Virus record (IMG/VR): IMGVR_UViG_3300030118_000538
Coordinates: 1-48,169 of that record
Direction: 5' to 3' (one strand)
From: a virus
Length of the DNA stretch: 48,169 nucleotides
The notes below the pieces were generated by a model. The model was not told the origin of the DNA, did no database searches, and saw nothing but the letters and a program-made list of their open reading frames with translations. The position numbers and the translations under genes are program-made. Position 1 is the first letter of the stretch, and each line of letters starts with the position of its first letter. Positions 8,538 to 47,592 of this stretch are shown in pieces.

Positions 8538-8981
8538 CTAAACTTCTATCCAGTCCTCCGCATTAAATAATAAACTTTCTGCCTTTCTTCGTCTAATCAA
8601 TCCTTCTAAAGTTTTGCCACCTGCTTTATTCCATCTACGCATTTCACTTGGCACTAACTCGTATTTGCCTTCATTAAGAACTTTTAACATGGTAGATGAA
8701 CGCAGATTGCCTACACCTAAATTAAAAGTCCATGCTACTAAAGCATCAAATTGACATTGGGTTAAAGGCACAGTCACATTATCTTCTACATAACCTTCAA
8801 ATAATTCTAAGTCCTTTTCTAGCATTTCATCTGCCATATCTTGTGTTATGGTCATGCCCTCTTTGACTCCTTCAGTATGTCCATAACCAATAGTAAGTAC
8901 ATTTGCACTACATAAATAACTTTCTAGTCTCAATCCTTCAAACTTTTTGATCAGACTAATTCCTTCTTGTGATGTTTTCAT
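8538..8981 (-). CDS. Endolysin, GH24 lysozyme family
   Basis: The ATG at 8981, after GGGGAGA, gives 147 residues; the upstream frame extension lies inside the nuclease gene. The N-terminal catalytic region has KKFEGLRLESYLCSANVLTIGYGHT spacing: E, then C in place of the usual D, then T, the E-C-T arrangement known in some phage lysozymes. FDALVAWTFNLGVGNLRSST and a late EGLIRRRKAE are also family landmarks. It cleaves peptidoglycan at lysis. No signal or SAR segment is present, so release needs a holin; a one-TM protein two genes upstream is a candidate. Confidence 0.93.
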   Translation of the reverse strand: MKTSQEGISLIKKFEGLRLESYLCSANVLTIGYGHTEGVKEGMTITQDMADEMLEKDLELFEGYVEDNVTVPLTQCQFDALVAWTFNLGVGNLRSSTMLKVLNEGKYELVPSEMRRWNKAGGKTLEGLIRRRKAESLLFNAEDWIEV

Positions 8982-8982
8982 A

Positions 8983-9381
8983 TTATTCTCCCCATGTTCC
9001 ATCTTCTCGTACTTTGGCGGTTTTTGTACCACCCCAGTATTCAACTGCGTGTCCTTCTTCAATAAGTAATTCACAAATGCTCTTACCATCTTCTGTAAAA
9101 GGGATGCCAAGTATTCGCCCATATTTGCCTTTACCTAATGATTGAATTTTGAATGAACCTACGCATAATTCAGTTAATCTTTCTTTAGCCTTCAAACCTA
9201 AGGCTTTTTCTTCAAGATTTCTAGTTCTGCTTTCAGGTGTGTCTATACCTGCTAAACGCACTCTTTGTTTGTGTAACATTACATCAAAACCAAGATCAAG
9301 AGTCACATCTATGGTGTCTCCATCTATTACCCTGTCTAAAATCGCATTATAGACAAATGGGGTGACGCTTGTTTTAGTCAT
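8983..9381 (-). CDS. Thermonuclease-like (SNase) nuclease
   Basis: From the ATG at 9381 the protein has 132 residues. SNase landmarks are all present: VIDGDTIDV, then RVRLAGIDTPE (first active-site Arg and the acidic site), then a helix with EEKALGLKAKE, then GKGKYGRILG (second Arg). No signal peptide is visible. It starts inside the end of the holin-like gene and ends two bases before the endolysin ATG, so it is an integral part of the lysis operon. It may degrade host DNA or lower lysate viscosity; the role is inference. Confidence 0.88.
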   Translation of the reverse strand: MTKTSVTPFVYNAILDRVIDGDTIDVTLDLGFDVMLHKQRVRLAGIDTPESRTRNLEEKALGLKAKERLTELCVGSFKIQSLGKGKYGRILGIPFTEDGKSICELLIEEGHAVEYWGGTKTAKVREDGTWGE

Positions 9382-9598: not shown

Positions 9599-9979
9599 CT
9601 ATTTTTTACTAGAATCTTCTGTATCTTCTTTTTTATCGTATTCTCTATAATAAGCTACGATAGAAAGTATATTATTGGTATATCTGGTGATTTCTGCCAT
9701 GTTATTAGACAGATTTTGATACTGTTGAGTAGTTAAAGCATAGTAAGGCTTTGCAGGAGCTTTACCTTCTTCTACTAATTTCAGATACTCTTCCATTAGT
9801 TCTGGGGTGAGTATTTCAAACTTAACATCTACAAGCTGCATTTCTAAAGGTAAAGGCGGATGATACATTGGCGGTATTTCAGCAATAGTCCTAACCTCTA
9901 CTGGCTTTGCTTTCGGCAATATAGAGCATCCGCTTATTAAGAAACCTAAAATTAAAAAGCTAGTTATTGTTCTTATCAT
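9599..9979 (-). CDS. Outer-membrane lipoprotein, o-spanin-like
   Basis: This 126-residue protein has a lipoprotein signal with lipobox LISGC (C18), followed by a proline-rich stretch (IAEIPPMYHPPLPLE) typical of Rz1-type o-spanins. The later region, YYALTTQQYQNLSNNMAEI, is shared by a lipoprotein family common in marine phages. It overlaps the end of the upstream i-spanin-like gene by 20 bases, matching a two-component spanin. It would link to the inner-membrane partner and fuse the membranes at lysis. Confidence 0.75.
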   Translation of the reverse strand: MIRTITSFLILGFLISGCSILPKAKPVEVRTIAEIPPMYHPPLPLEMQLVDVKFEILTPELMEEYLKLVEEGKAPAKPYYALTTQQYQNLSNNMAEITRYTNNILSIVAYYREYDKKEDTEDSSKK

Positions 9980-10376
9980 CTTCTTCTCCTAAGTCAAACT
10001 TATTTGGATTTGTTATATCAACTAAATTTTCCATAACCTTTTTAGACGCATTGTTGACCCTTTTTTCAATAAGTTTTGGCTTCATTAGGGCAAGATTATT
10101 TAGATCATGCCTTGCAAACTTATTTCTTAGCTCAGTAACTGCTCTGTTAGCTTCAGCTTTCTCTTTTTCTAAAATATCAAGCTGTTTACTTTGTTTTTCC
10201 TGATTTGCAAGATAATTCTTAATTGACTCGTTTTGTTCGGATATTTTTGACTCAAGTACGATCTGGTTGCCCTCTAAAACTGCCATTTGATTAAATAAAT
10301 ACTTAATATAGAAGCCAGAGCCACTAATTGTAGCTAACAAAAGACCTCCTAAAATAATGCTCAATTTAAATCCCAT
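9960..10376 (-). CDS. Inner-membrane coiled-coil protein, i-spanin-like (Rz-type)
   Basis: A 138-residue protein with an N-terminal TM helix (residues 5-27) and a long periplasmic coiled coil (30-90). The segment ELRNKFARHDLNNLALMKPKLIEKRVN is characteristic of Rz-like proteins in many tailed phages. It is directly followed by the overlapping lipoprotein gene, so the two form the spanin complex. Its ATG lies 11 bases inside the end of the cyclase gene, tying the cyclase transcript to the lysis module. Confidence 0.8.
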   Translation of the reverse strand: MGFKLSIILGGLLLATISGSGFYIKYLFNQMAVLEGNQIVLESKISEQNESIKNYLANQEKQSKQLDILEKEKAEANRAVTELRNKFARHDLNNLALMKPKLIEKRVNNASKKVMENLVDITNPNKFDLGEEDDKNNN

Positions 10377-12141
10377 AAACTCTCAATGGATATAATTTAC
10401 CTTTAACACTGATGTCGTTTACATATCTTAAATCAAATGTAGTTGTATTTGCAGTGTTTTCACCAATTAAAACTGTTTCTTTTTGATCTTTTGTAGCACT
10501 TTCAAGCCTAGCAGCAGTGTTAACAGCATCTCCTATAGCTGTGTAGTCAAATCTTGTCTCACTACCCATATTTCCAATGACTGCATCGCCTGTATTGATG
10601 CCTATGCCTATTTCAACAGGCTCTATACCCTCTTCTACCAGTTTTTTATTAAGTTCTTCCATATTTTTAACAATATCCTTTGCACACTGTATGGCTCTGT
10701 CTACATGATCATCTTGATCTAATGGAGCATTGAATATTGCCATCATTGCATCGCCAATATACTTATCTACCATGCCTTCATTAGCCTGAACAGCGTTTTG
10801 TTGTGCTGTTAGTGCAGCATTCATAATATATGTAACCTTTTCTGGCGGTAAACTCTCGCTAAGTGATGTAAAACCACGCACATCTGTAAATAAAAAGGTT
10901 GCCTCCTTCTTTTCACCGCCTAATTTTAGTAAATTTGGGTTGTTTTGCAGCTTTTTAACTTGTTTTGGGTCTAAATAATGCTCAAACTGCTTTTTGATCT
11001 GTAATCGTAGCTTGAATTGCTCTCTAAAGTTTAAATAAAAGGCAACAGCACCAATTATGAACTGACTTATGAGTGTCCAACTCACATCTATAAGTAAACC
11101 TGACCTAATTTGCTGATAGCCATAGACTGCTGTAGAGGCAAATATAAGCAAAAATGACAACAAACCTAAGGTAACCCCTAAAAACCTAGTAGAGACCCAG
11201 AGAATAGCTATAGATAGCAAAAAAATACCTAATTCAACAGCTAGACTGTAATCAGGTATATATGGAGAGTTTTGCACCAGTAAAGATTCTGCTAAAGCTG
11301 CTTGTATATAGTGTGGTTCTAACAAACCAACTGGTGTAGATAATTGTGGCATGACACCCTTTGCAGTCACCCCTACAAATACAAACTTATCCTCTACATC
11401 CATTTCCTTCAAAGATGTTCCACGTGGAACAATCCATGAAATCCACTTTCTCCCCATACTATCTACTTTGACAGGCGGTATACCTTTTACAGTTATTTCT
11501 TCTATACCATTGTCATTTGTTTTTATTATGTAAGTATCTGAGCCAGTAAGAGCTTTGAGAACCTGCGTACCAAATGATGCTATCCAACCATCAGGGGTTC
11601 TATAAAGTAAGGGTATTCTTCTTACTAAATTATCCGCATCTACAGGTGCAGATGCTATACCTTCATATGCAACTTTAGATAGTTCTTTTATGTTTTGTAC
11701 TGTGCCATTTGAAAGAAAGCCACCTATATCATCACCAAGAATTACTGTTCCTGTAGTCTTTGGATATTGTTTATTATTATTCTCAAAAAGAGCTATAACA
11801 GAAGGAGTATAAGCAAGAGCAGCTTTGAAGTAGCCATCACCTCCAAACCTATCTTCATGTGGGAAAGCTAACACCCATCCAACACCTAATGCACCATTTC
11901 TAAGCAAATCTAAATGTATTTTTGCAAGTTCTTCTCTAGGAAATGGATAACCACCTGCAGCATCAACATCTTCCTCTGTAATATTAAGTATTACAAAGTT
12001 TCCAGATTCTTTTGGTGTGACTACAAAATTATCAAATATTTTGAGTTTCAGTATCTCTGTCGGTGTACTTTGGAATATAAGCGGTAGTGATAATACAACT
12101 AAAAGTAATAAGCCTTGTGAATATTTAGTTAGATTCTTCAT
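10366..12141 (-). CDS. CHASE2-domain class III adenylate cyclase
   Basis: A 591-residue membrane protein. TM1 is at about 8-25, an extracytoplasmic CHASE2 sensor at about 30-295 (including a predicted LLEPHYIQAAL end), and three closely spaced TM helices lie at about 300-375. A linker and a cytoplasmic class III cyclase domain follow at about 410-591. Both metal-binding aspartates are present (FLFTD420 and YIGD464), as are adenine-specifying K460 and D532 (RFDYTAIGD) and transition-state N541 and R545 (NTAARLE). It should therefore make cAMP, not cGMP, in response to a periplasmic signal. Full-length cyclases are unusual cargo for phages. It sits in the late operon after the FecR-domain gene. 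Confidence 0.95.
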   Translation of the reverse strand: MKNLTKYSQGLLLLVVLSLPLIFQSTPTEILKLKIFDNFVVTPKESGNFVILNITEEDVDAAGGYPFPREELAKIHLDLLRNGALGVGWVLAFPHEDRFGGDGYFKAALAYTPSVIALFENNNKQYPKTTGTVILGDDIGGFLSNGTVQNIKELSKVAYEGIASAPVDADNLVRRIPLLYRTPDGWIASFGTQVLKALTGSDTYIIKTNDNGIEEITVKGIPPVKVDSMGRKWISWIVPRGTSLKEMDVEDKFVFVGVTAKGVMPQLSTPVGLLEPHYIQAALAESLLVQNSPYIPDYSLAVELGIFLLSIAILWVSTRFLGVTLGLLSFLLIFASTAVYGYQQIRSGLLIDVSWTLISQFIIGAVAFYLNFREQFKLRLQIKKQFEHYLDPKQVKKLQNNPNLLKLGGEKKEATFLFTDVRGFTSLSESLPPEKVTYIMNAALTAQQNAVQANEGMVDKYIGDAMMAIFNAPLDQDDHVDRAIQCAKDIVKNMEELNKKLVEEGIEPVEIGIGINTGDAVIGNMGSETRFDYTAIGDAVNTAARLESATKDQKETVLIGENTANTTTFDLRYVNDISVKGKLYPLRVYGI

Positions 12142-12328
12142 GTTTTACGATGTACTCCTTACAATCTACCAAATAGCTTTTTAGCCTATCTGCTTGTTTA
12201 TAGTGAAAATCTCTATAATCAGGCTCTATTATGGCTTTTTCGTAGTGAAAGTCTATCATTCTGAGGATTAAAGCTATAGCATCTTGATAAGGCATCCTTA
12301 CTGCCGAGCTGAAAGTCCTTTTAGGCAT
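12125..12328 (-). CDS. Hypothetical 67-residue protein between FecR and cyclase genes
   Basis: A small basic helical protein (MPKRTFSSAVRMPYQDAIA) with aromatic and charged residues and no signal peptide. It starts at the stop of the FecR-domain gene and overlaps the cyclase start by 17 bases, so it is made with both. A cytoplasmic partner for one of them is possible but unproven. No family is recognised. Confidence 0.65.
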   Translation of the reverse strand: MPKRTFSSAVRMPYQDAIALILRMIDFHYEKAIIEPDYRDFHYKQADRLKSYLVDCKEYIVKHEESN

Positions 12329-13485
12329 TACGACCCCTGTATTATTCTTATAGTGGTATCACTGCCTCCATTGATCTTTATAGTGTTTGACACACCATCT
12401 TGTATCAGAATTACAGTATATGAGCCAGTGCCATCCAAATCTATTCTCGCTGTTTCGCTTACGCTTCTACGCAGACTTATTAGTTGCCCTGTAACAAGTG
12501 TAGTAATTTGTGTGTCAGGGTCTTTACCGATAAGTGTGCCAGATATATTGATACCAGTAGCTTCTGCAAGTTGATCTTCCTCTTCTTCTATTGCTAAAGC
12601 ATCTAAAACATTCAATAAATCTTCCAAAAAGTTCACATCCAAGTAATTTATATCTAGCTCTGTAAACTCTAGCTCTTTACTTTCTAAAAAATCTTCATTC
12701 AAATAATCTATATCCAAGTCATCAAAATCTAAATAACTTGCTTGTTTTGTCTGTGCATTATCTTCTACAAACCTCTCATCTTCTTTTGGTGGATTAACAA
12801 TCAACATATTATCTATAAGTTCTAAAGTGAGGTCTAAAATTACAGGCTTAGAGGGTGCAGATTCAAACATTTTAGCTGTTGTGGCTTCGTAAGGCTTATT
12901 CAGAGTTACACTACCTGCCATTGTAGTCACAATGATTTCACCAGAGGATATGCCTGTATCATCTGGCAAAAGTATAATTAACGACTCTCCTAATTCATTC
13001 ACTGTGCAAGTAAAGTCAGTTCCACGAATAGCAATGTTAGCTGTTGGAGTTTTCAGAGATATATTCTTTTTATCTATTTTATTGAGACTACCAGTGATAA
13101 ATCTAGCTGTACCACTGGCAAACTTTAACGCCATCTTAGTTTTACTAGGATTTGGGTCGTAGATGTATTCGTCTATTATCAAAGACGAGTGTTCTGTAAG
13201 TCTTACTTTAGAGTCATCTAAAAAACTGATTGCAATACGACCATTGGATGTACGAACATCGTCAAAACTTTGTATGCCGAAGTCTACCTTAGGAGCATAC
13301 TCATCATCACGAATTATTTTGGCATAGCCATTTAGTTCGCTTACTGCTCCAATGTCAACAACTTGTGCTTGTGCCTTGATCGTTTTGGTTGACGCAAACA
13401 GTACCATTAGAACCATTAGATATGATGCGAAGCCAGTCGTTGTCCAAAGTTGACTGTTGCGATATGTTGAATGTTCTGCTACCAC
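12328..13485 (-). CDS. Secreted FecR-domain protein with acidic repeat linker
   Basis: From a GTG at 13485 the protein has 385 residues; an ATG at 13416 (residue 24) is the alternative and leaves a shorter signal sequence. A hydrophobic segment at 17-37 ends near KAQAQ and looks like a Sec signal. The FecR domain spans about 70-165 (VRTSNGRIAISFLDDSKV, SLKTPTANIAIRGTDF). An acidic linker at about 234-308 repeats DLDIDYLNEDFLE-type units. A beta-rich C-terminal region, with curlin-like IKINGGSDTTIRI, follows. It has no anti-sigma N-terminal domain, so it is not a classic FecR regulator. It overlaps the curlin-like gene by up to 131 bases. Confidence 0.85.
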   Translation of the reverse strand: MVAEHSTYRNSQLWTTTGFASYLMVLMVLFASTKTIKAQAQVVDIGAVSELNGYAKIIRDDEYAPKVDFGIQSFDDVRTSNGRIAISFLDDSKVRLTEHSSLIIDEYIYDPNPSKTKMALKFASGTARFITGSLNKIDKKNISLKTPTANIAIRGTDFTCTVNELGESLIILLPDDTGISSGEIIVTTMAGSVTLNKPYEATTAKMFESAPSKPVILDLTLELIDNMLIVNPPKEDERFVEDNAQTKQASYLDFDDLDIDYLNEDFLESKELEFTELDINYLDVNFLEDLLNVLDALAIEEEEDQLAEATGINISGTLIGKDPDTQITTLVTGQLISLRRSVSETARIDLDGTGSYTVILIQDGVSNTIKINGGSDTTIRIIQGS

Positions 13486-14065
13486 CAGTTTGCTCTAATT
13501 TAAAATATTGACCTGCATAACCATCTCCATCAAAAGTAACTGTATTGTCGTTACCATCTAAGCTCATATAGTTGGTAGCTCCATCAGCGTCAATAGATGC
13601 AGTAATTGTATTACCACCTCCATTGATTATCCAATCTAAATCAAGTTGTGATGCTAATGCAGAAGTTGCTTGATTCAAGGTAAAAGTATTTGTGTTACCT
13701 GTGACATCAACATAAATATTAGAATTATCTGCTCCAAAGGTATTTGTAGGGTCAGTTTGTATGTTGAATACATTACTGTCACCATCAAATTCAAAAAAGC
13801 CAGTATAAGTATCACTGGTAATATCTCCTAAAAATTTATTTAGATTACCTATTTGGTTTATATCAAGTGTTGCAGATGTAATGTCTAAGTCTAAGGCAGT
13901 CATACTTCCTGCTGTAGCATCGCTACCACCGATGATATTACCAGAACCAAGCTGCTCAACATCTATGTTTACAGTTGCTCCTGACTGATCTATATAAACC
14001 TCATTATCGGCAGTATATGCTACTCCCATATAAAATAAGGCTACTAATAAACTAACTATCTTCAT
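13355..14065 (-). CDS. Secreted curlin-repeat protein (CsgA/CsgB-like amyloid candidate)
   Basis: A 236-residue protein with a Sec signal peptide (MKIVSLLVALFYMGVAYTA). The mature part is rich in N, D, T, G and Q. It carries curlin-type strand-turn units such as VEQLGSGNIIGG, LDINQIGNLNKFLG, FTLNQATSALA and FNISQQS, spaced roughly 20-45 residues apart, which is looser than E. coli CsgA. It ends with VCVNQNDQGTSTSC, holding its only two cysteines. It directly follows the CsgG gene, the pore that exports curlins, so it is the likely substrate. Identification as a curlin rests on the Q-x-G-x-x-N pattern and context. A phage surface or decoy protein is an alternative. Confidence 0.75.
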   Translation of the reverse strand: MKIVSLLVALFYMGVAYTADNEVYIDQSGATVNIDVEQLGSGNIIGGSDATAGSMTALDLDITSATLDINQIGNLNKFLGDITSDTYTGFFEFDGDSNVFNIQTDPTNTFGADNSNIYVDVTGNTNTFTLNQATSALASQLDLDWIINGGGNTITASIDADGATNYMSLDGNDNTVTFDGDGYAGQYFKLEQTGGSRTFNISQQSTLDNDWLRIISNGSNGTVCVNQNDQGTSTSC

Positions 14066-14852
14066 TTTCTACAATACTCCAAAAACCTGATTTATGACCT
14101 TCATGTATAGTTTGTAGAACTGCAGTTTCTATAGCTGCTTGGAGTGCTAGATTGACTGATTCATTTTCGGTCATACCATTCTCTACTTCTACTAGCTCTG
14201 TTTGATCTGCCACAAATCTAAATACATCTTGGCTAACACCCACACTAAGTATGGTTTTGGTAACCAAGACTTCTAATAAAATGCGACCAGTAGATACTGA
14301 TACTGTGCGTAAAGATACAATTACTGTATCTTGTCGGTACTCTTTGGAACTTCCTATTCCTAAGTACCTAGCACCATAACCGCCTGATTTTACATTACTT
14401 TCATATCCTACAACACTACCCTCCATTAGTAAACCTGCAAATAATAATGGTTTAAGTTGTTGTTTTTCTTCAAAATTTTCTCTTGTAGATCGTATAATTT
14501 GTCTTTCTTTGGTTAAATTATCTAATCCTGTGCGTTCTACAACATCAAAAAAACCTGAATGCTGTAAAGCTCTTATTAGATAAATATGCGGTGCTTGTGT
14601 TACTGCTGTACTAAAAGTAGCAAAAGAACTGTTACCTCTTCTTTGTCCTGTGTCGTCTTTAAAAGCTGTAGGATAAACAGCTACAGTAGGTTTTCTCTCA
14701 GGTTTGCCAACTTCTGCAAGTCCTTTAATAACAAGAGAATTTATCTGTGCTTCTTGCTTTGTGGGTTCATTCTGCCACTTGCCATTTATTGCACAACTAG
14801 AAAGTAAAATTACCAATAGGCAAAGTGATAACAGTCGTACCACCAGTTTCAT
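14052..14852 (-). CDS. csgG: CsgG-like curli secretion channel lipoprotein
   Basis: Beginning at the ATG at 14852 the protein has 266 residues, near the 277 of E. coli CsgG, with lipobox LLSSC (C20). Conserved CsgG segments include DDTGQ, TFSTAVTQAPHIYLIRAL, MEGSVVGYESNVKSGG, GARYLGIG, VSLRTVSVSTGRIL and TKTILS. In E. coli CsgG forms a nonameric outer-membrane channel for curlin export. By my alignment the constriction residues Y51 and N55 are replaced by Ser and Thr while F56 is kept, so the pore may be wider or less selective. The start lies 56 bases inside csgF and has no ribosome site, suggesting coupled translation. In-frame codons upstream to a TTG at 14948 lack a signal peptide. Confidence 0.93.
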   Translation of the reverse strand: MKLVVRLLSLCLLVILLSSCAINGKWQNEPTKQEAQINSLVIKGLAEVGKPERKPTVAVYPTAFKDDTGQRRGNSSFATFSTAVTQAPHIYLIRALQHSGFFDVVERTGLDNLTKERQIIRSTRENFEEKQQLKPLLFAGLLMEGSVVGYESNVKSGGYGARYLGIGSSKEYRQDTVIVSLRTVSVSTGRILLEVLVTKTILSVGVSQDVFRFVADQTELVEVENGMTENESVNLALQAAIETAVLQTIHEGHKSGFWSIVENEDS

Positions 14853-15306
14853 CGGTAATTGTAAGTGTAATAAACTCGCCATCTGACACATAGGTAATAG
14901 TATTTCCTTCCAAAGTAATAGTACCTTCTGTACTAGGAGTTTCTCCAAACAAGTTTTCTACTAATTGCCTAGATAACTGTGCGTATATACGACTTTCTAA
15001 ATTTCTTATAAACCTTGCTAATGTTGTGTTTTCTTTGTCTCTTTCTATCTCTTCTTGTAATGCCTTGATTTCATCTTTCAAGGCTTTCTTTCTGTTAAAT
15101 TCTTGATTTTCTATTGTCAAATAATGCGATGATGTGCCTATACCTGAAAAACTAGGACTTTTGAATTTGAATACCATTTCATCTGCAAAAACACTCTGAA
15201 TAGAACCAACTAAGACTGTTAAAACAATAAAAGACAAACCAATTATGGCAAACCACATCTTGAATTTTTCATCTTTTGCTTGTTGTGCTTTTGTCTTTTT
15301 TTTCAT
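14797..15306 (-). CDS. csgF: CsgF-like curli assembly factor
   Basis: A 169-residue protein with a basic N-terminus, hydrophobic segment at 18-36 and a probable cleavage after VFA (residue 41). The mature start DEMVFKFKSPSFSG closely matches the N-terminus of E. coli CsgF, the part that plugs into the CsgG channel. The C-terminal portion (LSRQLVENLFG, then TITLEGNTITYVSDGEFITLTITDE) matches CsgF's helix and beta region. It anchors curlin nucleation at the pore in bacteria. Gene order csgF-csgG-curlin differs from E. coli csgDEFG and csgBAC. No csgE, csgC or csgD is seen in the window. Confidence 0.85.
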   Translation of the reverse strand: MKKKTKAQQAKDEKFKMWFAIIGLSFIVLTVLVGSIQSVFADEMVFKFKSPSFSGIGTSSHYLTIENQEFNRKKALKDEIKALQEEIERDKENTTLARFIRNLESRIYAQLSRQLVENLFGETPSTEGTITLEGNTITYVSDGEFITLTITDETGGTTVITLPIGNFTF

Positions 15307-15550
15307 TATCTTTAAGTTTATTTTCTTCCTTAAGCTCTAAAACTGTATTTACCTTCTGTTGTAATCGTATCATATCTTGGTCTAAAAGACGCAACTGGTC
15401 AGTCAATCTTATAATGGTTTTTTTCATGTCCTCTACAGCAGGACTTATCGTATTTGTTATTGTTTGCCATACATACCAGACGAAATATCCTAGTCCTACA
15501 ACCATAACTACAGGAAAACCAAAGTCAGCTATTAACTGTCCAATGTCCAT
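15269..15550 (-). CDS. Small one-TM coiled-coil protein (paralogue of the gene at 15843)
   Basis: A 93-residue protein: TM helix at about 11-32 (FPVVMVVGLGYFVWYVW), then a coiled coil through residue 75 with LLDQDMIRLQQKVNTVLEL, then a highly charged lysine-rich tail. Its pattern matches the next upstream gene along its length, indicating duplication. Similar proteins near tail genes in marine phages are sometimes called holin-like. It overlaps csgF by 38 bases. Function is unproven. Confidence 0.7.
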   Translation of the reverse strand: MDIGQLIADFGFPVVMVVGLGYFVWYVWQTITNTISPAVEDMKKTIIRLTDQLRLLDQDMIRLQQKVNTVLELKEENKLKDNEKKDKSTTSKR

Positions 15551-15843
15551 TAATCTCTTCTTGCGTCTATTTTTCCATCTTCTACAAAATTCTCTGCTCT
15601 TGCAATTCTTTGCAAATCTGGACTAAGATCAAGTGCTGCAGATACACTTGTATCTATTCTAATCATGTCATTGTTCATTATAGAAGCTCTTGTAATAAGC
15701 ATTTGTGTTATGCCTTGTATAGTTTTTATCTCTGCAACAAGACCATCCATTAGCTGCTTCATAACTAAAAATATAAAGTAAGCCATAACCAAAGCACCTG
15801 CTATTGGTACACCTACCTCAGCTATCAGATTGAACGCTTCCAT
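15550..15843 (-). CDS. Small one-TM coiled-coil protein
   Basis: A 97-residue protein with a TM helix at about 8-29 and a helical region with MNNDMIRIDTSVSAALDL. It aligns with its downstream neighbour (LIAxxGxP near the start, DMIR and LxL later), so the two are tandem paralogues and could form a hetero-oligomer. The stop and the neighbour's ATG share one base. Holin-like or anchoring roles are possible; no motif decides. Confidence 0.7.
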   Translation of the reverse strand: MEAFNLIAEVGVPIAGALVMAYFIFLVMKQLMDGLVAEIKTIQGITQMLITRASIMNNDMIRIDTSVSAALDLSPDLQRIARAENFVEDGKIDARRD

Positions 15844-30740: not shown

Positions 30741-33700
30741 TTATCCTTCCAATGTCTCTATTCTAGCTTTTAAGTCATTTATTATCACTTGTTGTTCTTG
30801 TATTGCTTTTATTAAAATAGGTACAAATACACTATATTTGACTGATTTAGTAACTGTACCTAAATCTTCGCCTTCCTCATTATAATCTTTGTGGTTTTCT
30901 ACCATACTAGGAAATATAGATTCTAGTTCTTGTGCAATTACCCCTATTTGTTTTTGTTTGTCTCCTTTTAAATTAAAGTTTTTAACTTTTACTCTATTTA
31001 AATCTTCTAATTTATTAGTAGCATCAACTATATTTTCTTTTATTTTAGAATCAGAAAGTTGTCCATAAGCATTATTAGTATTTTGCACATTACCTGAACT
31101 AGCGTTTACAACGAATCTTCTACTTCCACCGACATTTATGTAATCTATAATATGAGTACCTGAAGCTCCATTTATGTCTAAAACACCATTACCAGCTAGA
31201 GCTGTACCAACTCTCACATTACCATGCATATTAATGCTGCCGCCAGAATTGATACGCATTGCCTCTGTGAAGTTTCCTGCTTCTGGCTTGGTTGAGAATG
31301 TTAATAATCCACCTGAATCGTCACTTGCATTTGAGTCAGATGTTGCTGATCTTGCAGAAATAGCAGCAACTAACATACCATCACTATCTAATCCATCATC
31401 ATCTGCATTATCTGTATTGACAAACCTTAGACCTCCTACTTCGTTGTTATCACCATTTGTAGTTCTTGAAAGAATAATAGTTCCAGAACCACCTGCTGTT
31501 CCCCCTGCAACCTCTAAAAATCTGTTGCTTGGACCTAAAGTGCCTGAATGTATTGTGTCTGTTCCCACACCGATATTTCCAGAGGGAGTTATTTCTAGTG
31601 CTGTATTTGTTACCCCAGAAGCATAGCTGTTACTCGTTCCAAAAAATAAAGAGCTTCCGCTATTTGTTATTTTATTTCCAATGATTGAAGATACTTGAGT
31701 TAAAGTATTGGTTGAAAAAGTAATTCCAGATACATCGCCATTGGATAAGTCAGTTCCCCCATTGATATGAATTTGCCCAACCGCAGTTCCTGTCTTTGAA
31801 CTTCTGCTATTATCTTCAACTAAGGTAACTAATGCTGAAGGATTTGTAATACCCACTCCAATATTGCCATCACTCATTACTGAAAATAAAGCATTATTAT
31901 CTTTATCTGCTGCCCTCAAAGCATACTCTGATGAACTTGAGCCACCTGCAAAATATGCTCCAAAGCCTGAAGCATTAGTATTCCTAACATCTACTGCTGT
32001 AGTGGTTGAGTCCTCACGAATATCTAAAGCTACACCACTTGCTGCTGTGGTTTTGATACCTACCCCTGCGTTGAATAAAGCTCTACCTGCTTCTGACATA
32101 TCAAGAGTAAGGGCAGTAATAGTTGACCCACCATCATTTCCTTGTAATTTTATATCTTTGTCTTGTACTGCTGAATATATTGCAAAATCACTAGATGAGT
32201 TATACACCCTACCAAATTCAGTGCCACCATCTTTAAACATAATGTCAGCACCATCAGCATCAAGAGATATTGTTCCTGCTACATCTACTGTTAAATCGCC
32301 ACTTGATAAATCAATTTCTGTGCCATCAATAGTGATATTGTCTACAACTACACCTGCGTTTGCTGTGACTGTTCCTGTGAACGCTGCATTTTCATTACTG
32401 TCAAAGGTCATTGCCACTGCGTCTGCTGCAGAGGTAATACTTACTGCTGTAGCCATGATGTCATTAACATCAGCTTTCTTCAGTGCAGAATCAGTAGCGT
32501 CAAGTATCATCATCTTATCGCCACTTACTGGTGTTACTTCAGTCAAGCCTGATATTACATTGGCATTTAAGTGAGCAGCGTCTATTGAGCCATCTGTGTA
32601 GTGTTCACTATCTATAGCATTGTCTGCTATTTTTGCTCCTGTTATTGCGTCTGCTGCGATCTTGGCAGTTGTAACATTTAGATCAACTAGCTTGGCAGTT
32701 GTGATTGTGTCGTCTACTGGTACATTGATGTTTGTTTGTGTAAATGTATTTACCTCTACGATTGCTCCTGTGGCAGGAGCTGTATCAAATGTCAAAGTTG
32801 AGCCAGATATAGAATAATCAGATTTTTGCTGATAGACACCATCTATAAATACTTGTGTGTTGTTTTCTGAAACAGGTGCTATTGAAAGTGTAAACGCAGC
32901 ACTGCCACTAGCTGTGAATTGATCGTTGTTTAAGTTACTACCAGATACTGCAGCTCTTACAGAATAAACTATTATTCTTGTGCCGCTAGGAGGTGCTTCA
33001 TCTAGCGTCAAAGTTGTGCCATTTAGAACATAATCATTAGGATTCTGGAATACACCACCGATAAACACAAAGAGATTATCTTCGCTATTTGGAGTTTGAC
33101 TAAGTGTAAATGCGGTTGTTGAAGCATTTGCTGTTGTGAAATTGTCTACAGTAAAAGTATTAGTGCCACCGCCACCTATTTCACCCCAAGCATCAGTGTA
33201 ACCTTCAAATCTGCCTAATGTAGTGTTGTATCTAAAATGTCCTGCTGCTCCTGATGGTCTTTGTGCTGTCGTACCTTTTGGCACAAAGAAAGCATCTGTT
33301 GCACTTCCTGCATCAAGACTTACAGAAGGACTGGCAGTTTTAATTCCTACTCTATTATTTGATGTGTCAACTTTAAATACATTGGTGTTGACAGTCACAT
33401 CATCTGTAACTGCCAACGAAGATGATAATGTCGCTGCACCAGTTACGCCTAATGTACTGCTTAAAGTAGTAGCACCAGTTACGCCAAGCGTACCGCCTAT
33501 TGATGTGTTACCAGTGGTATCTGCTACAGTGAATTTGTTGGTGTCCATTGTCAAACCACCATTTAGGGTAGTTGCACCTGTCACTGTAAGAGTGCCACCA
33601 AATGAACCATTACCAGAAACAGTTAAGGCAGTTTGTGTTTGATTGATCGTTACATTGTCACCCATGAAAGTAGCTAGATCAGACAAAGCTACCTGTTTCA

Positions 33701-36700
33701 TAGTTCCTGCATCATTGACTATAACTCTGTCAGTAGTTGCTAGTGTGGTAGATGTTGCACTTGTACCGCCATCAAGAAGATTCAGTTCTGCGGTTGTAAC
33801 AGTCGCACCATCAAGAATATTTAGCTCGTCTGTTGTTACAGTAGCTCCATCAAGAATCTCTAGTTCAGCTTCAGTAATACCTGCACTACCAATATTTAAG
33901 TTTGTAGTATTAAGTGTGGTAACTGTGACCGCATCAGGCAGACCTATTGTTATTTCATTGTTAGATACTGCTGTTTCTATCTCATTGCTTGTTCCAGAAA
34001 TTGTTAGAGTTTCGCCTGTCGCAAAAGTATCGTTGCTACCTGAGTCTGCTGCTAATGTGAAAGAAGTTGATATATTATTTGTACTTACAGCAGTTATTTG
34101 ACCTTTTGCATTAACTGTTATTGCAGGAATAGCTGTAGCAGTTCCATAACTCCCTGCTGACACTCCTGTGTTAGCTATTGATACCGCACCACTACTAACA
34201 CTGAAATCGCTTGTAAACGAAGCTATACCCTTGTTAGAAGCAGTAGCATCTTCGGCAGAGAAGGTCACTGTGCCAGAGCTTTCAGCTACATCTAAGCCTT
34301 CCCCTGCTGCAAAAGTAATTGTTCCACCCAACGCAGTTGCAGTAGAGTTAGAGCCATCCGACACAGTGATTGTAGAGTTAGCTAATTTAGAATTAGCTAT
34401 TGAACCTGCAAGTTGTGCATTTGTAATTGTTCCAGACAGACTGCTTGTTGGATAATTCGTTGCATCACTTAGATCAAAAGCAGGAGTGGTGTCAGAAGCA
34501 CCTAGAGCTAGTGAAACTCCACCAAAGTTTATAGAGGAGTTTGCAAGTTTGGCATTAGCTATACTTCCTGCCAGTTGTGCATTGGTTATAGTTCCTGTCA
34601 ATGATGATGTAGGGTAACCAGTTGCATCCTGCAAATTAAACGCAGGTGTTGTATCACTTGCTCCCAATGCTAATGAAACGCCACCAAAGTTTATACTTGA
34701 GTTGGCTAACATTGTATTACTGACTGTGCCTGAATCTCCTGTGCCTACTAAAGTTCCTGCTGCTGCAGGTAAAGTTACAGTTGGATTACCGCTAAATGCA
34801 GAGTGTGCAGGAGCTTGAAGTCTTAGATAGTGGGCATTGTTGCTTTCACAGTAAAAGTCTATAAATGATTGTGTGCCACCATTCTTTATCTTAATTGCAC
34901 CTTGTTCTATAACGACACCATTTGTAGAGCCTCCTCCTACGCCTAATGATGTTGTGATCTCTGTAGCTGCAGGTAAACCAATTGTGACTGCTGCTGTTTC
35001 GCTTCCACTGCCACTTACTTCTACTTCGTTAGAAGTACCTGCAATAGTAGCTATGTAGTTTCCTGTAGTATCTGTACCCAGTGCTACAGAATTAGCTTGT
35101 ATTGTTGTACTGATGGATATACCTGCTGTGCCATCAAAGTTTGCTGTTCCTACTACATCACCAGATAAAGCTATAGCTCTTGCAGTTTCTAAAGCTGTTG
35201 CTGTACTTGCATTACCTGCAACATCACCAACAAAAGATGTAGCTGCAAATATCTTGTTAGCAACTAACCTACCATCACTGTTATTCCATAAGATAGTTGG
35301 TTTGCTTGATGAGCCACCAAACTCTAAACCTGCACCATTCGTTGCAGAAAGAGTCGTAGCATTCTTGGCAAACCTTATTGTTGTATCTTCTACATCTAAG
35401 TTTGTTGTGTTTATGGTAGTAGTTGTGCCATTTACAGTTAAGTCTCCTGTCACTGTCAAAGCACCACCAATAGTTACATTGTCTGGTAAGCCTATAGTAA
35501 CTGCAGCAGTTTCACTGCCAGAGCCTGATACTTCTATTTCATTAGATGTTCCTGCAATCGTTGCTACATAATTACCTGTTGATTGTGTTCCTAGTGTGAC
35601 CGCATTGTTAGCTATCTGATCTGTACCAATGGCATCATCAGCTATATCTAATGTAACCGCAGCAGTCTCGCTGCCAGAATTAGCTACTGTAATCCTAGAA
35701 TTACCTGCGTCTGCTATAGTGGCGACATAATTTCCTGTTGTATCTGTGCCAAGTGCAACGCTGTTTGCTGCAACTGTAAGACCAATAGAAGTGTTGCCAA
35801 GATTTGTTATTGTTCCAGAACCAGTTACATCTCCTGTGAAAGTAAGTGTAGGGTCATTGACATCAAAATCTATTGTGCCATCGCCATCTTCATAAGTGAC
35901 TGATATACCGCTTTCTGTGTTAGAGCTGACCATAGCTCCAACGATGTCCTGTACTCTTTCAGCATTTAGCGTTACATCACCTGAGCTAACTGTAAAGTCT
36001 GTACTATCAAACGATGCTATACCTTTATTAGAATCGGTGGCATCTTCAGCACTTATGGTAATAGCTGCAGACTCACTGCCACTGCCAGAGACATCTATTC
36101 CCTCTCCTGCTGCTACTGTGGCAATGTAGTTACCAGTTGTATCAGTACCCAGAGCCACCGAGTTAGCTTGTATAGTGGTAGAGATTGTGACATCTCCAAG
36201 ATTGGTCATAGTAGCCGAACCTGCTACATCTCCACTTAATGTAATAACAGGGTCAGCTACATCAAAGTCTATTGTTCCATCAGAATCTTCATAGGTTACA
36301 GTTATGCCATTTTCTGTATTGCCTGTGAGCATAGCTCCTACTAGGTCTTGAACGAACTCTGTATTTAGACCTACAGTTACACCTGCTGTTTCTGAGCCAC
36401 TGTTTGCTACATCAATACCGCTATTACTTGCTGCTAAAGTAGCAACATAATTACCTGTGGTGTCTGTTCCTAAAGCTACTGCGTTGTTGACTATAGTAGC
36501 TGTAAGGGTAGCACTAGCTAAATCTGTGATCGTAACTGAACCAGATAAATCACCAGATAGTGCTATTGTGAAATCATCTACATTGAAATCTATAGTTCCA
36601 TCTGCATCTTGATAATCAACTGACAAGCCACTTTCGGTATTGCTTGTGACCATAGCACCGACAATATCTTGTATTCTTTCTGCGTTTACTGTTACAGCTC

Positions 36701-37577
36701 CTGAAGATACTGTGAAATCTGTACTGTCAAATGAAGCTATACCCTTGTTTGAATCGGTAGCATCCTCTGCAGATATTGTTACTGCTGCTGTTTCACTACC
36801 GCTACCGCTTACATCTATGCCTTCACCTGCAGCAATGGTTGCTACATAGTTGCCTGTCGTGTCTGTTCCTAAGGCGACACTGTTAGCAACAATCGTTGCA
36901 GTAAGAGTGGCGTTGCCCAATTGGGAGAGAGTGGCACTACCGCTAAGGTCTCCTGCAAGTGTGATTAGGGGGGATTTGTTAATAACAGTGTCTGAACTTA
37001 TATCCCCACCATTCAGATCAACTGAGTTTAGGACAGGTGAGGTCAAAGTTTTGTTTGTTAAAGTTTGTGTGCCAGTAAGTGTTGTCACTGTACTATCTAT
37101 GTTGATAGTGAGTGTATTACTTGAGCCTACTGTATCTAATCCTGTACCACCTGCTATATTTAAAACTTCGGTGTTAATGGTAACGCTTTGGTTACCACCT
37201 GTATCACCTTGAAACTGTACTGCTTGTGCTGCGTTTTGAGCATCTACATAGCTTTTGATTGATTGTTGTGTAGCAAGTTTTGTGTTGCTATTTGACCCCA
37301 TGTTATCTTCATCAAGTACACCTGTAACAACTGCACCACCTGAAGTGAAGCCTAAGTTGAACAATTTTGCGTTAAGTGATTGAGCTGCAGTGCTTTGACT
37401 GTCTACCCACTGTGTATTGCTGTGATCATATACAAGTAATGAACCTGCTGTACTAGCTGTGGAATCAGCAACACTTCTACCTAAAATGGTGTTTGGACCA
37501 GCAACTCCCTGAGTTCCTGCTGTTATAACTGATATTGTACTTACATCGGTAACTGTGATTTGACTTACTGTACTCAT
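30741..37577 (-). CDS. Giant tail fibre with C-terminal S74-type chaperone peptidase
   Basis: At 2278 residues this is the largest gene. It contains six copies of a VALGTDTTGNYxAT-type unit, a duplicated SSINFGGVSLALGASDTTP block, and triple (E)LxILDGATVTT units. The final 105 residues carry the S74 intramolecular chaperone signature: SDSKIKENI, then KQIGVIAQELESIFP, ending in a coiled coil. That domain folds the trimer and then cuts itself off. It is placed first in the three-fibre cassette. The protein is probably the main long tail or side fibre; receptor specificity is unknown. Confidence 0.9.
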   Translation of the reverse strand: MSTVSQITVTDVSTISVITAGTQGVAGPNTILGRSVADSTASTAGSLLVYDHSNTQWVDSQSTAAQSLNAKLFNLGFTSGGAVVTGVLDEDNMGSNSNTKLATQQSIKSYVDAQNAAQAVQFQGDTGGNQSVTINTEVLNIAGGTGLDTVGSSNTLTINIDSTVTTLTGTQTLTNKTLTSPVLNSVDLNGGDISSDTVINKSPLITLAGDLSGSATLSQLGNATLTATIVANSVALGTDTTGNYVATIAAGEGIDVSGSGSETAAVTISAEDATDSNKGIASFDSTDFTVSSGAVTVNAERIQDIVGAMVTSNTESGLSVDYQDADGTIDFNVDDFTIALSGDLSGSVTITDLASATLTATIVNNAVALGTDTTGNYVATLAASNSGIDVANSGSETAGVTVGLNTEFVQDLVGAMLTGNTENGITVTYEDSDGTIDFDVADPVITLSGDVAGSATMTNLGDVTISTTIQANSVALGTDTTGNYIATVAAGEGIDVSGSGSESAAITISAEDATDSNKGIASFDSTDFTVSSGDVTLNAERVQDIVGAMVSSNTESGISVTYEDGDGTIDFDVNDPTLTFTGDVTGSGTITNLGNTSIGLTVAANSVALGTDTTGNYVATIADAGNSRITVANSGSETAAVTLDIADDAIGTDQIANNAVTLGTQSTGNYVATIAGTSNEIEVSGSGSETAAVTIGLPDNVTIGGALTVTGDLTVNGTTTTINTTNLDVEDTTIRFAKNATTLSATNGAGLEFGGSSSKPTILWNNSDGRLVANKIFAATSFVGDVAGNASTATALETARAIALSGDVVGTANFDGTAGISISTTIQANSVALGTDTTGNYIATIAGTSNEVEVSGSGSETAAVTIGLPAATEITTSLGVGGGSTNGVVIEQGAIKIKNGGTQSFIDFYCESNNAHYLRLQAPAHSAFSGNPTVTLPAAAGTLVGTGDSGTVSNTMLANSSINFGGVSLALGASDTTPAFNLQDATGYPTSSLTGTITNAQLAGSIANAKLANSSINFGGVSLALGASDTTPAFDLSDATNYPTSSLSGTITNAQLAGSIANSKLANSTITVSDGSNSTATALGGTITFAAGEGLDVAESSGTVTFSAEDATASNKGIASFTSDFSVSSGAVSIANTGVSAGSYGTATAIPAITVNAKGQITAVSTNNISTSFTLAADSGSNDTFATGETLTISGTSNEIETAVSNNEITIGLPDAVTVTTLNTTNLNIGSAGITEAELEILDGATVTTDELNILDGATVTTAELNLLDGGTSATSTTLATTDRVIVNDAGTMKQVALSDLATFMGDNVTINQTQTALTVSGNGSFGGTLTVTGATTLNGGLTMDTNKFTVADTTGNTSIGGTLGVTGATTLSSTLGVTGAATLSSSLAVTDDVTVNTNVFKVDTSNNRVGIKTASPSVSLDAGSATDAFFVPKGTTAQRPSGAAGHFRYNTTLGRFEGYTDAWGEIGGGGTNTFTVDNFTTANASTTAFTLSQTPNSEDNLFVFIGGVFQNPNDYVLNGTTLTLDEAPPSGTRIIVYSVRAAVSGSNLNNDQFTASGSAAFTLSIAPVSENNTQVFIDGVYQQKSDYSISGSTLTFDTAPATGAIVEVNTFTQTNINVPVDDTITTAKLVDLNVTTAKIAADAITGAKIADNAIDSEHYTDGSIDAAHLNANVISGLTEVTPVSGDKMMILDATDSALKKADVNDIMATAVSITSAADAVAMTFDSNENAAFTGTVTANAGVVVDNITIDGTEIDLSSGDLTVDVAGTISLDADGADIMFKDGGTEFGRVYNSSSDFAIYSAVQDKDIKLQGNDGGSTITALTLDMSEAGRALFNAGVGIKTTAASGVALDIREDSTTTAVDVRNTNASGFGAYFAGGSSSSEYALRAADKDNNALFSVMSDGNIGVGITNPSALVTLVEDNSRSSKTGTAVGQIHINGGTDLSNGDVSGITFSTNTLTQVSSIIGNKITNSGSSLFFGTSNSYASGVTNTALEITPSGNIGVGTDTIHSGTLGPSNRFLEVAGGTAGGSGTIILSRTTNGDNNEVGGLRFVNTDNADDDGLDSDGMLVAAISARSATSDSNASDDSGGLLTFSTKPEAGNFTEAMRINSGGSINMHGNVRVGTALAGNGVLDINGASGTHIIDYINVGGSRRFVVNASSGNVQNTNNAYGQLSDSKIKENIVDATNKLEDLNRVKVKNFNLKGDKQKQIGVIAQELESIFPSMVENHKDYNEEGEDLGTVTKSVKYSVFVPILIKAIQEQQVIINDLKARIETLEG
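34980..36900 (-). repeat. In-frame tandem-type repeats in the giant fibre gene
   Basis: Six degenerate copies of a unit encoding VALGTDTTGNYVATIA plus a GSGSETAAVT stretch occur here at uneven spacing, with related blocks of about 110 residues between several of them. Copies differ more at synonymous sites than in protein, suggesting old duplication under selection. They may let fibre length change by recombination. Confidence 0.7.
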
Positions 37578-46977: not shown

Positions 46978-47592
46978 GTGAGAGGCTTATTTGATTATTT
47001 TGATGGTTACACTATAACTGTAAATGAATATGACATTTTAAGAGTATCTTACGAAGAAACAAAACCATTTATTTTAGACATACATTATGCAAAAAGAATG
47101 CCCTCAATAACTCATGCGTTTGGTTTATATAGAGGACATTCTTTGATTGGTGTAGTCACTTATGGCTCACCTGCTTCTCCTGCTTTATGTAAAGGTATTG
47201 CAGGTGAAAAAAATAAACATCATGTCTTAGAACTTAATAGACTTGTTTTGAAAGAAAATAAAAAAAATCAGGCTTCAATCTTGATTGGAGCTTCCTTAAA
47301 ATTATTGCCAAAACCTAAGATAATCGTGTCTTATGCTGATACAGCTCAAAATCATTTAGGTATTGTTTATCAAGCTACTAATTTTATGTTTACAGGGACA
47401 TCAAAGCCTAGAACAGATATGGCAGGTAAAGATGGCAAACACTCTAGGCATCATTTAGGAGATACAACCAACAGAGTAGATAGAAGTGCAAAACACAGAT
47501 ATATATATTTACTTGGTGGAAAAACTTGGAAAAAAAATATGCTTAAGGAACTATCTTATCAACCTTTGGATTATCCAAAATACAGGAGTTAA
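46978..47592 (+). CDS. Mom-like DNA modification enzyme
   Basis: The 204-residue protein starts with GTG after AGGAG. It has the features of the Mu Mom family (GNAT-related): IHYAKRMP, LIGVVTYGSP, LELNRLVL and SYADTAQNHLGIVYQATNF, in order and spacing like Mom. Mu Mom turns adenines in phage DNA into a carbamoylmethyl form that resists restriction. It is co-transcribed with the metallopeptidase gene as an early function. A com-like translational activator is not evident. Confidence 0.85.
   Translation: MRGLFDYFDGYTITVNEYDILRVSYEETKPFILDIHYAKRMPSITHAFGLYRGHSLIGVVTYGSPASPALCKGIAGEKNKHHVLELNRLVLKENKKNQASILIGASLKLLPKPKIIVSYADTAQNHLGIVYQATNFMFTGTSKPRTDMAGKDGKHSRHHLGDTTNRVDRSAKHRYIYLLGGKTWKKNMLKELSYQPLDYPKYRS

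What the first reader, a model, noticed from the sequence alone, without database searches (positions are those of the whole stretch)
13355..15306. Phage-borne curli-type secretion module: csgF, csgG and a curlin-repeat substrate
Three adjacent late genes encode a CsgF-like factor (mature start DEMVFKFKSPSFSG), a CsgG-like lipoprotein pore (MEGSVVGYESNVKSGG and GARYLGIG segments) and a signal-peptide-bearing, N/Q/G-rich curlin-repeat protein. From memory, csgG/csgF homologues have been noted in some marine myophage genomes recovered from metagenomes. A siphovirus set that also carries a candidate amyloid substrate seems less explored. Possible roles: an outer-membrane pore aiding lysis, fibres that trap new hosts or virions, or superinfection exclusion.
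Basis: partly seen in the sequence, partly recalled or inferred. Interest (0 to 1): 0.92.

Follow-up and report, generated by a model that had tools for sequence, protein, structure and literature searches.

The report
Curli secretion module in a siphovirus
This virus of an unidentified, probably marine bacterium carries genes that look able to export a sticky amyloid-like fibre onto the surface of the infected cell, plus a membrane sensor that makes cyclic AMP; the gene set was already known from other marine phages, but I found no report of it in this long-tailed phage type.

Summary
Window 14797-15306 is CsgF, 14052-14852 is CsgG, and 13355-14065 is an exported curlin-type beta-solenoid protein. 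The finding is too small, however. The conserved unit runs from 15843 to 10366: two small membrane/coiled-coil proteins, CsgF, CsgG, curlin, a FecR-domain protein, a 67-aa ORF and a CHASE2 adenylate cyclase. Overlapping spanin genes and an endolysin follow.

Gene order is rigid. In 81 non-redundant loci, every locus with room has CsgG (78/78), curlin (70/70) and FecR (64/64) after CsgF. A small membrane protein lies upstream in 63/64; the exception is a bacterial chromosome.

The module is already published in podo- and myo-pelagiphages (PMC9599517, PMC7029224). New here: it sits in a siphovirus, a carrier type I found neither in the papers held nor in 50,697 phage records. It joins the lysis cassette in this lineage but not in others. 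The genes where the literature places a 'histidine kinase' have no kinase domain. 'FecR' is an exported protein, not an anti-sigma factor. FecR/CHASE2-cyclase pairs are common in Alphaproteobacteria, sometimes beside giant RTX adhesins.

Best reading: a phage-encoded fibre exporter plus a FecR-CHASE2-cAMP envelope sensor. The benefit to the phage remains inferred.

The parts
15550..15843 (-). small membrane/coiled-coil protein, paralogue 1 (97 aa; hydrophobic segment about residues 3-37), phrog_18771
   Evidence: with paralogue 2 it holds the place where PMC9599517 puts its 'HK' (identity with that gene inferred from position); no kinase domain in 22 members
15269..15550 (-). small membrane/coiled-coil protein, paralogue 2 (93 aa), phrog_18771, weak similarity to a holin family (phrog_4898 E=4e-5)
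   Evidence: found upstream of csgF in 63 of 64 loci
14797..15306 (-). CsgF-like extracellular factor; predicted cleavage SVFA|DEMVFKF
   Evidence: PF10614 E=5.7e-20; phrog_35372
14052..14852 (-). CsgG-like outer-membrane lipoprotein pore; lipobox LLSSC
   Evidence: PF03783 E=2.1e-52; E. coli CsgG structures E=2.1e-48
13355..14065 (-). secreted curlin-type substrate, GxxN repeats, predicted beta-solenoid
12328..13485 (-). exported FecR-domain protein (start codon uncertain; the relatives' start is about 25 codons in); C-terminal domain ends in IxxQGS
   Evidence: PF04773 E=3.7e-11; AF2 model matches PupR signalling domain Z 15.2; 40-sequence alignment
12125..12328 (-). 67-aa ORF between FecR and the cyclase, mostly lineage-specific
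   Evidence: homologues in only 3 other loci
10366..12141 (-). CHASE2-domain class III adenylate cyclase; catalytic residues D420, K460, D464, N541, R545 invariant in 32 relatives
   Evidence: PF05226 E=8e-25, PF00211 E=3.5e-21
9960..10376 (-). Rz-like inner-membrane spanin, overlaps the cyclase gene by 11 bp (neighbour, not core module)
   Evidence: phrog_739 E=6e-13
9599..9979 (-). Rz1-like spanin lipoprotein (neighbour)
   Evidence: phrog_812 E=2e-13
8538..9122 (-). endolysin, phage lysozyme (neighbour)
   Evidence: PF00959 E=1.5e-47

Best explanation
A complete phage-borne curli-type (type VIII) export module fused to an envelope sensor, in the late operon of a siphovirus. Steps supported by sequence: CsgG is an outer-membrane lipoprotein pore, CsgF its partner, and 13355-14065 the Sec-exported curlin-type substrate; the FecR-domain protein is exported; the cyclase has an extracytoplasmic CHASE2 domain and an intact class III catalytic site. 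Inferred steps: (1) CsgG/F secrete the curlin protein, which polymerises on the infected cell late in infection; (2) the periplasmic FecR protein reports the state of export or the cell surface to CHASE2, switching cAMP synthesis; (3) the small membrane/coiled-coil proteins are inner-membrane parts of the module, not kinases; (4) the phage gains because cells or debris stick together or are shielded (aggregation, superinfection exclusion). Confidence that it is a T8SS with its own substrate: about 0.93; that FecR and CHASE2-AC form one signalling pair: about 0.7; that the benefit is fibre-mediated adhesion or shielding: about 0.45. The overall figure covers steps 1-2 together.
For: HMM and structure matches for every part. 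Rigid order: after CsgF, CsgG 78/78, curlin 70/70, FecR 64/64; membrane protein upstream 63/64; AC 21/31. The curlin gene is at least as conserved as the pore and under purifying selection, which fits a module kept for its substrate. Genes overlap or touch from 15843 through the spanins. A bacterial chromosome (L141) has curlin-CsgF-CsgG-curlin-curlin-FecR, so FecR does occur with T8SS genes in a cell. FecR and CHASE2-AC are neighbours on 24 alphaproteobacterial contigs within 5 kb, against 0.57 expected, several with FecR at the N-terminus of RTX/VWA/Calx-beta surface proteins. Precedents: CHASE2 cyclases of S. meliloti sense an outside protein through an outer-membrane barrel and make cAMP (PMC13001267); a Burkholderia FecR/CHASE2-kinase operon is needed for biofilm (PMC5192318).
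Against: No experiment. No CsgE gate in the record, so gating is unexplained. Pfam's curlin repeat does not score and the PDB fold match is generic beta-helix. No cNMP-binding protein in the phage, so any cAMP target must be the host's, and the host is unknown. The cyclase is missing from 10 of 31 loci with room (one of these is the bacterial locus). PMC9004378 saw no clumping in Melnitz-infected cultures, a phage with the same module.
Confidence: 0.65

Rival explanations
1. Lysis device: CsgG/CsgF, with the holin-like membrane proteins, act as a timed pore that depolarises or permeabilises the envelope before spanins and endolysin act (PMC9004378 proposed this for Melnitz).
For: In this lineage the module lies between tail genes and spanins/endolysin in one overlapping operon. 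One paralogue matches a holin family weakly (E=4e-5). Lysis homologues follow the module in 23 of 50 loci with room.
Against: Curlin and FecR are never lost (70/70, 64/64), which a pore would not need. In other phages structural or early-type genes follow the module, and in HTVC008M a tape measure gene. The membrane proteins occur in the phage collection only with curli genes, unlike a general holin. The phage already has Rz-like spanins and an endolysin.
Confidence: 0.12
2. Uptake channel: without CsgE the CsgG pore stays open and imports larger nutrients (cobalamin, siderophores) during infection; FecR reflects iron sensing (suggested in PMC9599517).
For: No CsgE in the window. FecR domain present.
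Against: CsgF and the curlin protein have no role in uptake yet are strictly kept. The protein is not a FecR anti-sigma factor: signal peptide, no N-terminal cytoplasmic domain, a different C-terminal domain. FecR-type domains are widespread outside iron uptake, e.g. in RTX adhesins.
Confidence: 0.08
3. The curlin-like protein is a virion or tail component or a surface decoy rather than a fibre, exported by CsgG/F only as a carrier; the benefit is receptor masking.
For: Late position next to tail genes. The model is a well-folded beta-solenoid, and phage spikes are beta-helical too.
Against: A Sec signal peptide and neighbouring dedicated csgF/csgG genes point outward from the cell. Sequence kinship is to curlins. 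The gene sits in podo-, myo- and siphoviruses with unrelated virions.
Confidence: 0.1

Closest known systems
T8SS/curli module of pelagipodoviruses (HTVC023P type) and pelagimyoviruses, PMC9599517
   Same: Same genes in the same order: [small gene(s)]-CsgF-CsgG-CsgA/B-FecR-AC; no CsgE, CsgC or CsgD reported there, no CsgE found here.
   Different: Carrier here is a siphovirus; no second curlin gene; spanins and endolysin follow. The gene(s) before CsgF are called histidine kinase there; in the same place here are 93-97-aa membrane/coiled-coil proteins without kinase domains (identity with theirs inferred from position).
HTVC008M gp011-gp019 and Methylophilales phage Melnitz _97 to _104
   Same: Every module part has a homologue there in the same order.
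   Different: 27-50% identity; both are large myoviruses with a second curlin gene; their module is not next to lysis genes.
Bacterial curli operon with FecR (L141, Gammaproteobacteria MAG, 96-kb contig)
   Same: CsgF-CsgG-curlin-curlin-FecR on a chromosomal contig.
   Different: No small membrane proteins and no cyclase there.
E. coli csgBAC-csgDEFG
   Same: CsgG, CsgF and a curlin-type substrate.
   Different: No CsgE found; E. coli constriction residues Tyr51 and Asn55 correspond to Asn and Thr, Phe56 kept (alignment, residue roles from general knowledge).
FecR/CHASE2-cyclase pairs of Alphaproteobacteria; Burkholderia BiofilmReg operon (PMC5192318)
   Same: Exported FecR-domain protein paired with a CHASE2 sensor enzyme, linked to surface or biofilm traits.
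   Different: No csgG homologue in the 20 bacterial neighbourhoods read; in Burkholderia the enzyme is a kinase.

Membership tests
Type VIII secretion (curli) system | CsgG outer-membrane lipoprotein pore | tested here: met
Type VIII secretion (curli) system | CsgF partner with conserved N-terminal FxFxxPxFxG segment | tested here: met
   sequence MVFKFKSPSFSG
Type VIII secretion (curli) system | Secreted curlin-repeat substrate | tested here: met
   the Pfam curlin-repeat model itself gave no match
Type VIII secretion (curli) system | CsgE periplasmic gate (present in enterobacteria, not essential) | tested here: not met
   no PF10627 match in the record, control positive in E. coli; PMC9599517 reports the same for pelagiphages; not counted as defining, as PMC7029224 notes secretion without CsgE
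Type VIII secretion (curli) system | Amyloid fibres on the cell surface | not testable with these tools
   needs expression and Congo red, ThT or EM
Phage T8SS module of PMC9599517 | Conserved order [small gene]-CsgF-CsgG-CsgA-FecR(-AC) | tested here: met
Phage T8SS module of PMC9599517 | Histidine kinase upstream of CsgF | tested here: not met
   the proteins in that place have 93-97 aa, hit phrog_18771 and no HisKA/HATPase family in 22 members; identity with the paper's 'HK' inferred from position
FecR iron anti-sigma regulator | N-terminal cytoplasmic anti-sigma domain plus transmembrane plus periplasmic FecR domain | tested here: not met
   hydrophobic N-terminus leads straight into the FecR domain; only the periplasmic signalling-domain fold matches PupR
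Class III adenylate cyclase with CHASE2 | CHASE2 domain plus catalytic D, D, K, N, R residues | tested here: met
   activity not tested
Holin | Accumulating small membrane protein that triggers lysis | tested here: inconclusive
   weak phrog_4898 match in 4 of 22 members; found only with curli genes in the phage collection
Siphovirus morphotype | Tail terminator, major tail protein, tape measure, distal tail and J-type proteins; no sheath | tested here: met
   virion not seen; no sheath family among the proteins scanned

The most novel reading that the evidence does not exclude
The phage module is a self-monitoring surface-fibre organelle: the FecR protein, tethered at the CsgG/F exporter (its fold also resembles an adhesin surface-anchoring domain, PDB 5ix9, Z 7.3), signals through CHASE2 so that host cAMP rises or falls with fibre export, letting the virus time late events by what happens on the outside of the cell. 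The phage-specific membrane/coiled-coil proteins would link the two membranes.
Probability: 0.2. Interest if true: 0.8.

Novelty: new member of a known kind. Interest (0 to 1): 0.5.

Why it matters
It extends a known but functionally unsolved ocean-wide phage module to a third tail type. It shows that the substrate and the FecR protein are the parts never lost, which argues for a real exporter and against a bare pore. It corrects two annotations that have steered hypotheses: the kinase call for the gene before csgF, and FecR as an iron regulator. It also points to a concrete, testable FecR-CHASE2-cAMP signalling pair with bacterial precedents.

Tried and rejected
Chimera: rejected, same junctions in many independent contigs. 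Chance repeat: rejected. CsgF against PDB by single-sequence phmmer: nothing up to E=0.1; the Pfam match stands. Curlin profile against PDB sequences: only chance matches; Foldseek against PDB: no significant hit, VIA shows generic beta-helices. Podovirus portal model PF12236 rang nowhere, so it is uninformative; a portal protein from an HTVC023P-type phage was used instead. Siphoviral CsgG as one clade: the tree needs 3 changes, but one origin is not excluded. Bacterial curli locus with both FecR and CHASE2-AC: none found among 18 genome hits or 20 FecR/AC neighbourhoods. Phage-encoded cAMP receptor: none found. Sigma-70 promoter and terminator scan: no more sites than in shuffles. No tRNA to hint at the host. 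Structure of CsgG not predicted, because sequence matches to solved CsgG were decisive and jobs were limited; the 9:9 complex cannot be modelled here.
Full report
CHECK. The three genes exist as described. CsgF (14797-15306) matches PF10614 at 5.7e-20 and CsgG (14052-14852) matches PF03783 at 2.1e-52; E. coli CsgG structures align over residues 8-261 at 2.1e-48. CsgG's likely start is the Met at 14852, giving a lipoprotein signal with LLSSC. The third protein (13355-14065) has a Sec signal and a mature region rich in T, D, N and G. It has 8 GxxN motifs against 2.9 in shuffles (P=0.003), and six GxxN positions are conserved across 47 homologues, with both residues invariant in five and the N at least 90% in the sixth. 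It matches the NCBIfam CsgA model weakly (6e-4), aligns with HTVC008M's annotated curlin at 1.1e-21 and with a chromosomal curlin-like protein next to csgG in a gammaproteobacterial MAG at 3.4e-8. AlphaFold2 gives a confident all-beta model (pLDDT 85.4). Its best viral structural neighbours are named 'Curlin associated' (TM 0.67-0.71 for two of them), and PDB neighbours are beta-helices, consistent with a curlin beta-solenoid though not specific to it.

WHAT IS REALLY THERE. The conserved unit is larger than the finding: two 93-97-aa membrane/coiled-coil paralogues (15843-15269), CsgF, CsgG, curlin, a FecR-domain protein (13485-12328), a 67-aa ORF and a CHASE2 adenylate cyclase (12141-10366), then spanin genes overlapping by 11 and 20 bp and, further on, an endolysin. 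Within the module neighbouring genes overlap by 1-56 bp, and curlin/FecR by up to 131 bp; the FecR start codon is uncertain because most relatives start about 25 codons further in. This looks like one late operon downstream of the tail genes. The carrier is a siphovirus by gene content: J-type tail protein, distal tail protein, tape measure, tail terminator, major tail protein, HK97-type capsid. It has no close relative in 50,697 phage records.

CONSERVATION. Scans gave 53 CsgG loci and at least 594 curlin loci in IMG/VR. In 81 non-redundant loci with CsgF, every locus with room also has CsgG (78/78), curlin (70/70) and FecR (64/64); the membrane protein lies upstream in 63/64, the exception being the bacterial locus L141; the cyclase is present in 21/31. 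All module genes are under purifying selection. Cyclase catalytic residues D420, K460, D464, N541 and R545 are invariant in 32 sequences. Of 25 larger records, 6 carry a siphoviral J protein, 4 an HTVC023P-type podoviral portal and 1 a T4 portal; the rest could not be typed. In the CsgG tree the window lies in a supported clade in which all typed members are siphoviral. Two other siphoviral groups fall elsewhere, but a single origin is not excluded.

PRIOR WORK. Phage csgF/csgG were reported in pelagimyophages with the 'sibling capture' idea (PMC7029224). The full module with curlin, FecR and AC was reported in podo- and myo-pelagiphages, with metatranscriptome evidence (PMC9599517). A lysis role was proposed for Melnitz (PMC9004378), a paper that says csgA/B are absent; yet the phage's own GenBank record annotates two curlin repeat proteins, and a profile built here matches both (2e-24 and 4e-15). 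So the module is not new. What I could not find in the papers held, or in the phage collection, is a siphoviral carrier.

TWO CORRECTIONS. PMC9599517 names the gene(s) before csgF histidine kinase. The genes at that position here and in HTVC008M and Melnitz encode about 92-116 aa, belong to phrog_18771 and match no kinase domain in 22 members. That they are the same genes as the paper's 'HK' is inferred from position. In the phage collection they occur only with curli genes, so they look like module parts; a weak holin similarity (4e-5) leaves a membrane-timing role open. Second, FecR here is an exported protein whose FecR domain matches only the periplasmic signalling domain of PupR-type regulators (Z 15.2), with no anti-sigma part. 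'Iron regulator' is therefore unsupported, and FecR does occur beside curli genes in a bacterium (L141).

MECHANISM. FecR and CHASE2-AC genes lie within 5 kb of each other on 24 alphaproteobacterial contigs, against 0.57 expected (expectation from a uniform-placement estimate on the matches listed). In three of the proteins scanned the FecR domain sits in RTX/Calx-beta or VWA surface proteins. None of 20 such neighbourhoods has csgG. CHASE2 cyclases in S. meliloti respond to an outside protein through an outer-membrane barrel (PMC13001267), and a Burkholderia operon with FecR and a CHASE2 kinase is needed for biofilm (PMC5192318). I infer that the phage module combines a curli exporter with a FecR-CHASE2 envelope sensor that sets cAMP. 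The cAMP target must be the host's, since the phage has no cNMP-binding domain. The module's use to the phage (aggregation, superinfection exclusion, shielding) is inferred. A pure lysis role is unlikely to be general: lysis homologues follow in 23 of 50 loci with room, and in others structural or early-type genes follow.

VERDICT. A real, complete, conserved phage T8SS in a new carrier type; a new member of a known kind, with corrected parts and a testable signalling hypothesis.

Noticed in passing
window 46978-47592 (+): Mom-family protein (PF25680 E=1.3e-37), suggesting Mu-like DNA modification against host restriction.
   Followed up: no
L221-L240 (alphaproteobacterial genomes): FecR-domain genes sit beside CHASE2 adenylate cyclases far more often than chance (24 contigs within 5 kb, 0.57 expected); in three proteins scanned FecR is the N-terminal part of RTX/Calx-beta or VWA surface proteins. 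Looks like a widespread surface-sensing pair.
   Followed up: partly
L129 7692-8411 and 9470-10486 (Melnitz): PMC9004378 states that Melnitz lacks curlin genes, but its record annotates two curlin repeat proteins and the profile built here matches both.
   Followed up: yes
L132-L140, L149: Phage-type curli contigs lie in MAGs labelled Maricaulis, Neomarinimicrobiota, Synechococcus, Flavobacteriaceae, Rhodobacteraceae, Saprospirales and Pelagibacter; probably mis-binned phage DNA that could be mistaken for host curli.
   Followed up: partly
OR851715.1 (L131): A 1.5-kb unverified 'Salmonella phage' contig encodes a CsgG 43% identical; probably a bacterial or environmental contaminant.
   Followed up: no
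window 12328-13485 and 13355-14065: Curlin and FecR genes overlap out of frame by about 90-130 bp in the window and relatives, an unusually long overlap that may couple their translation.
   Followed up: no
window 30741-37577 (-): 2278-aa tail protein with a C-terminal Peptidase_S74 self-cleaving chaperone.
   Followed up: no
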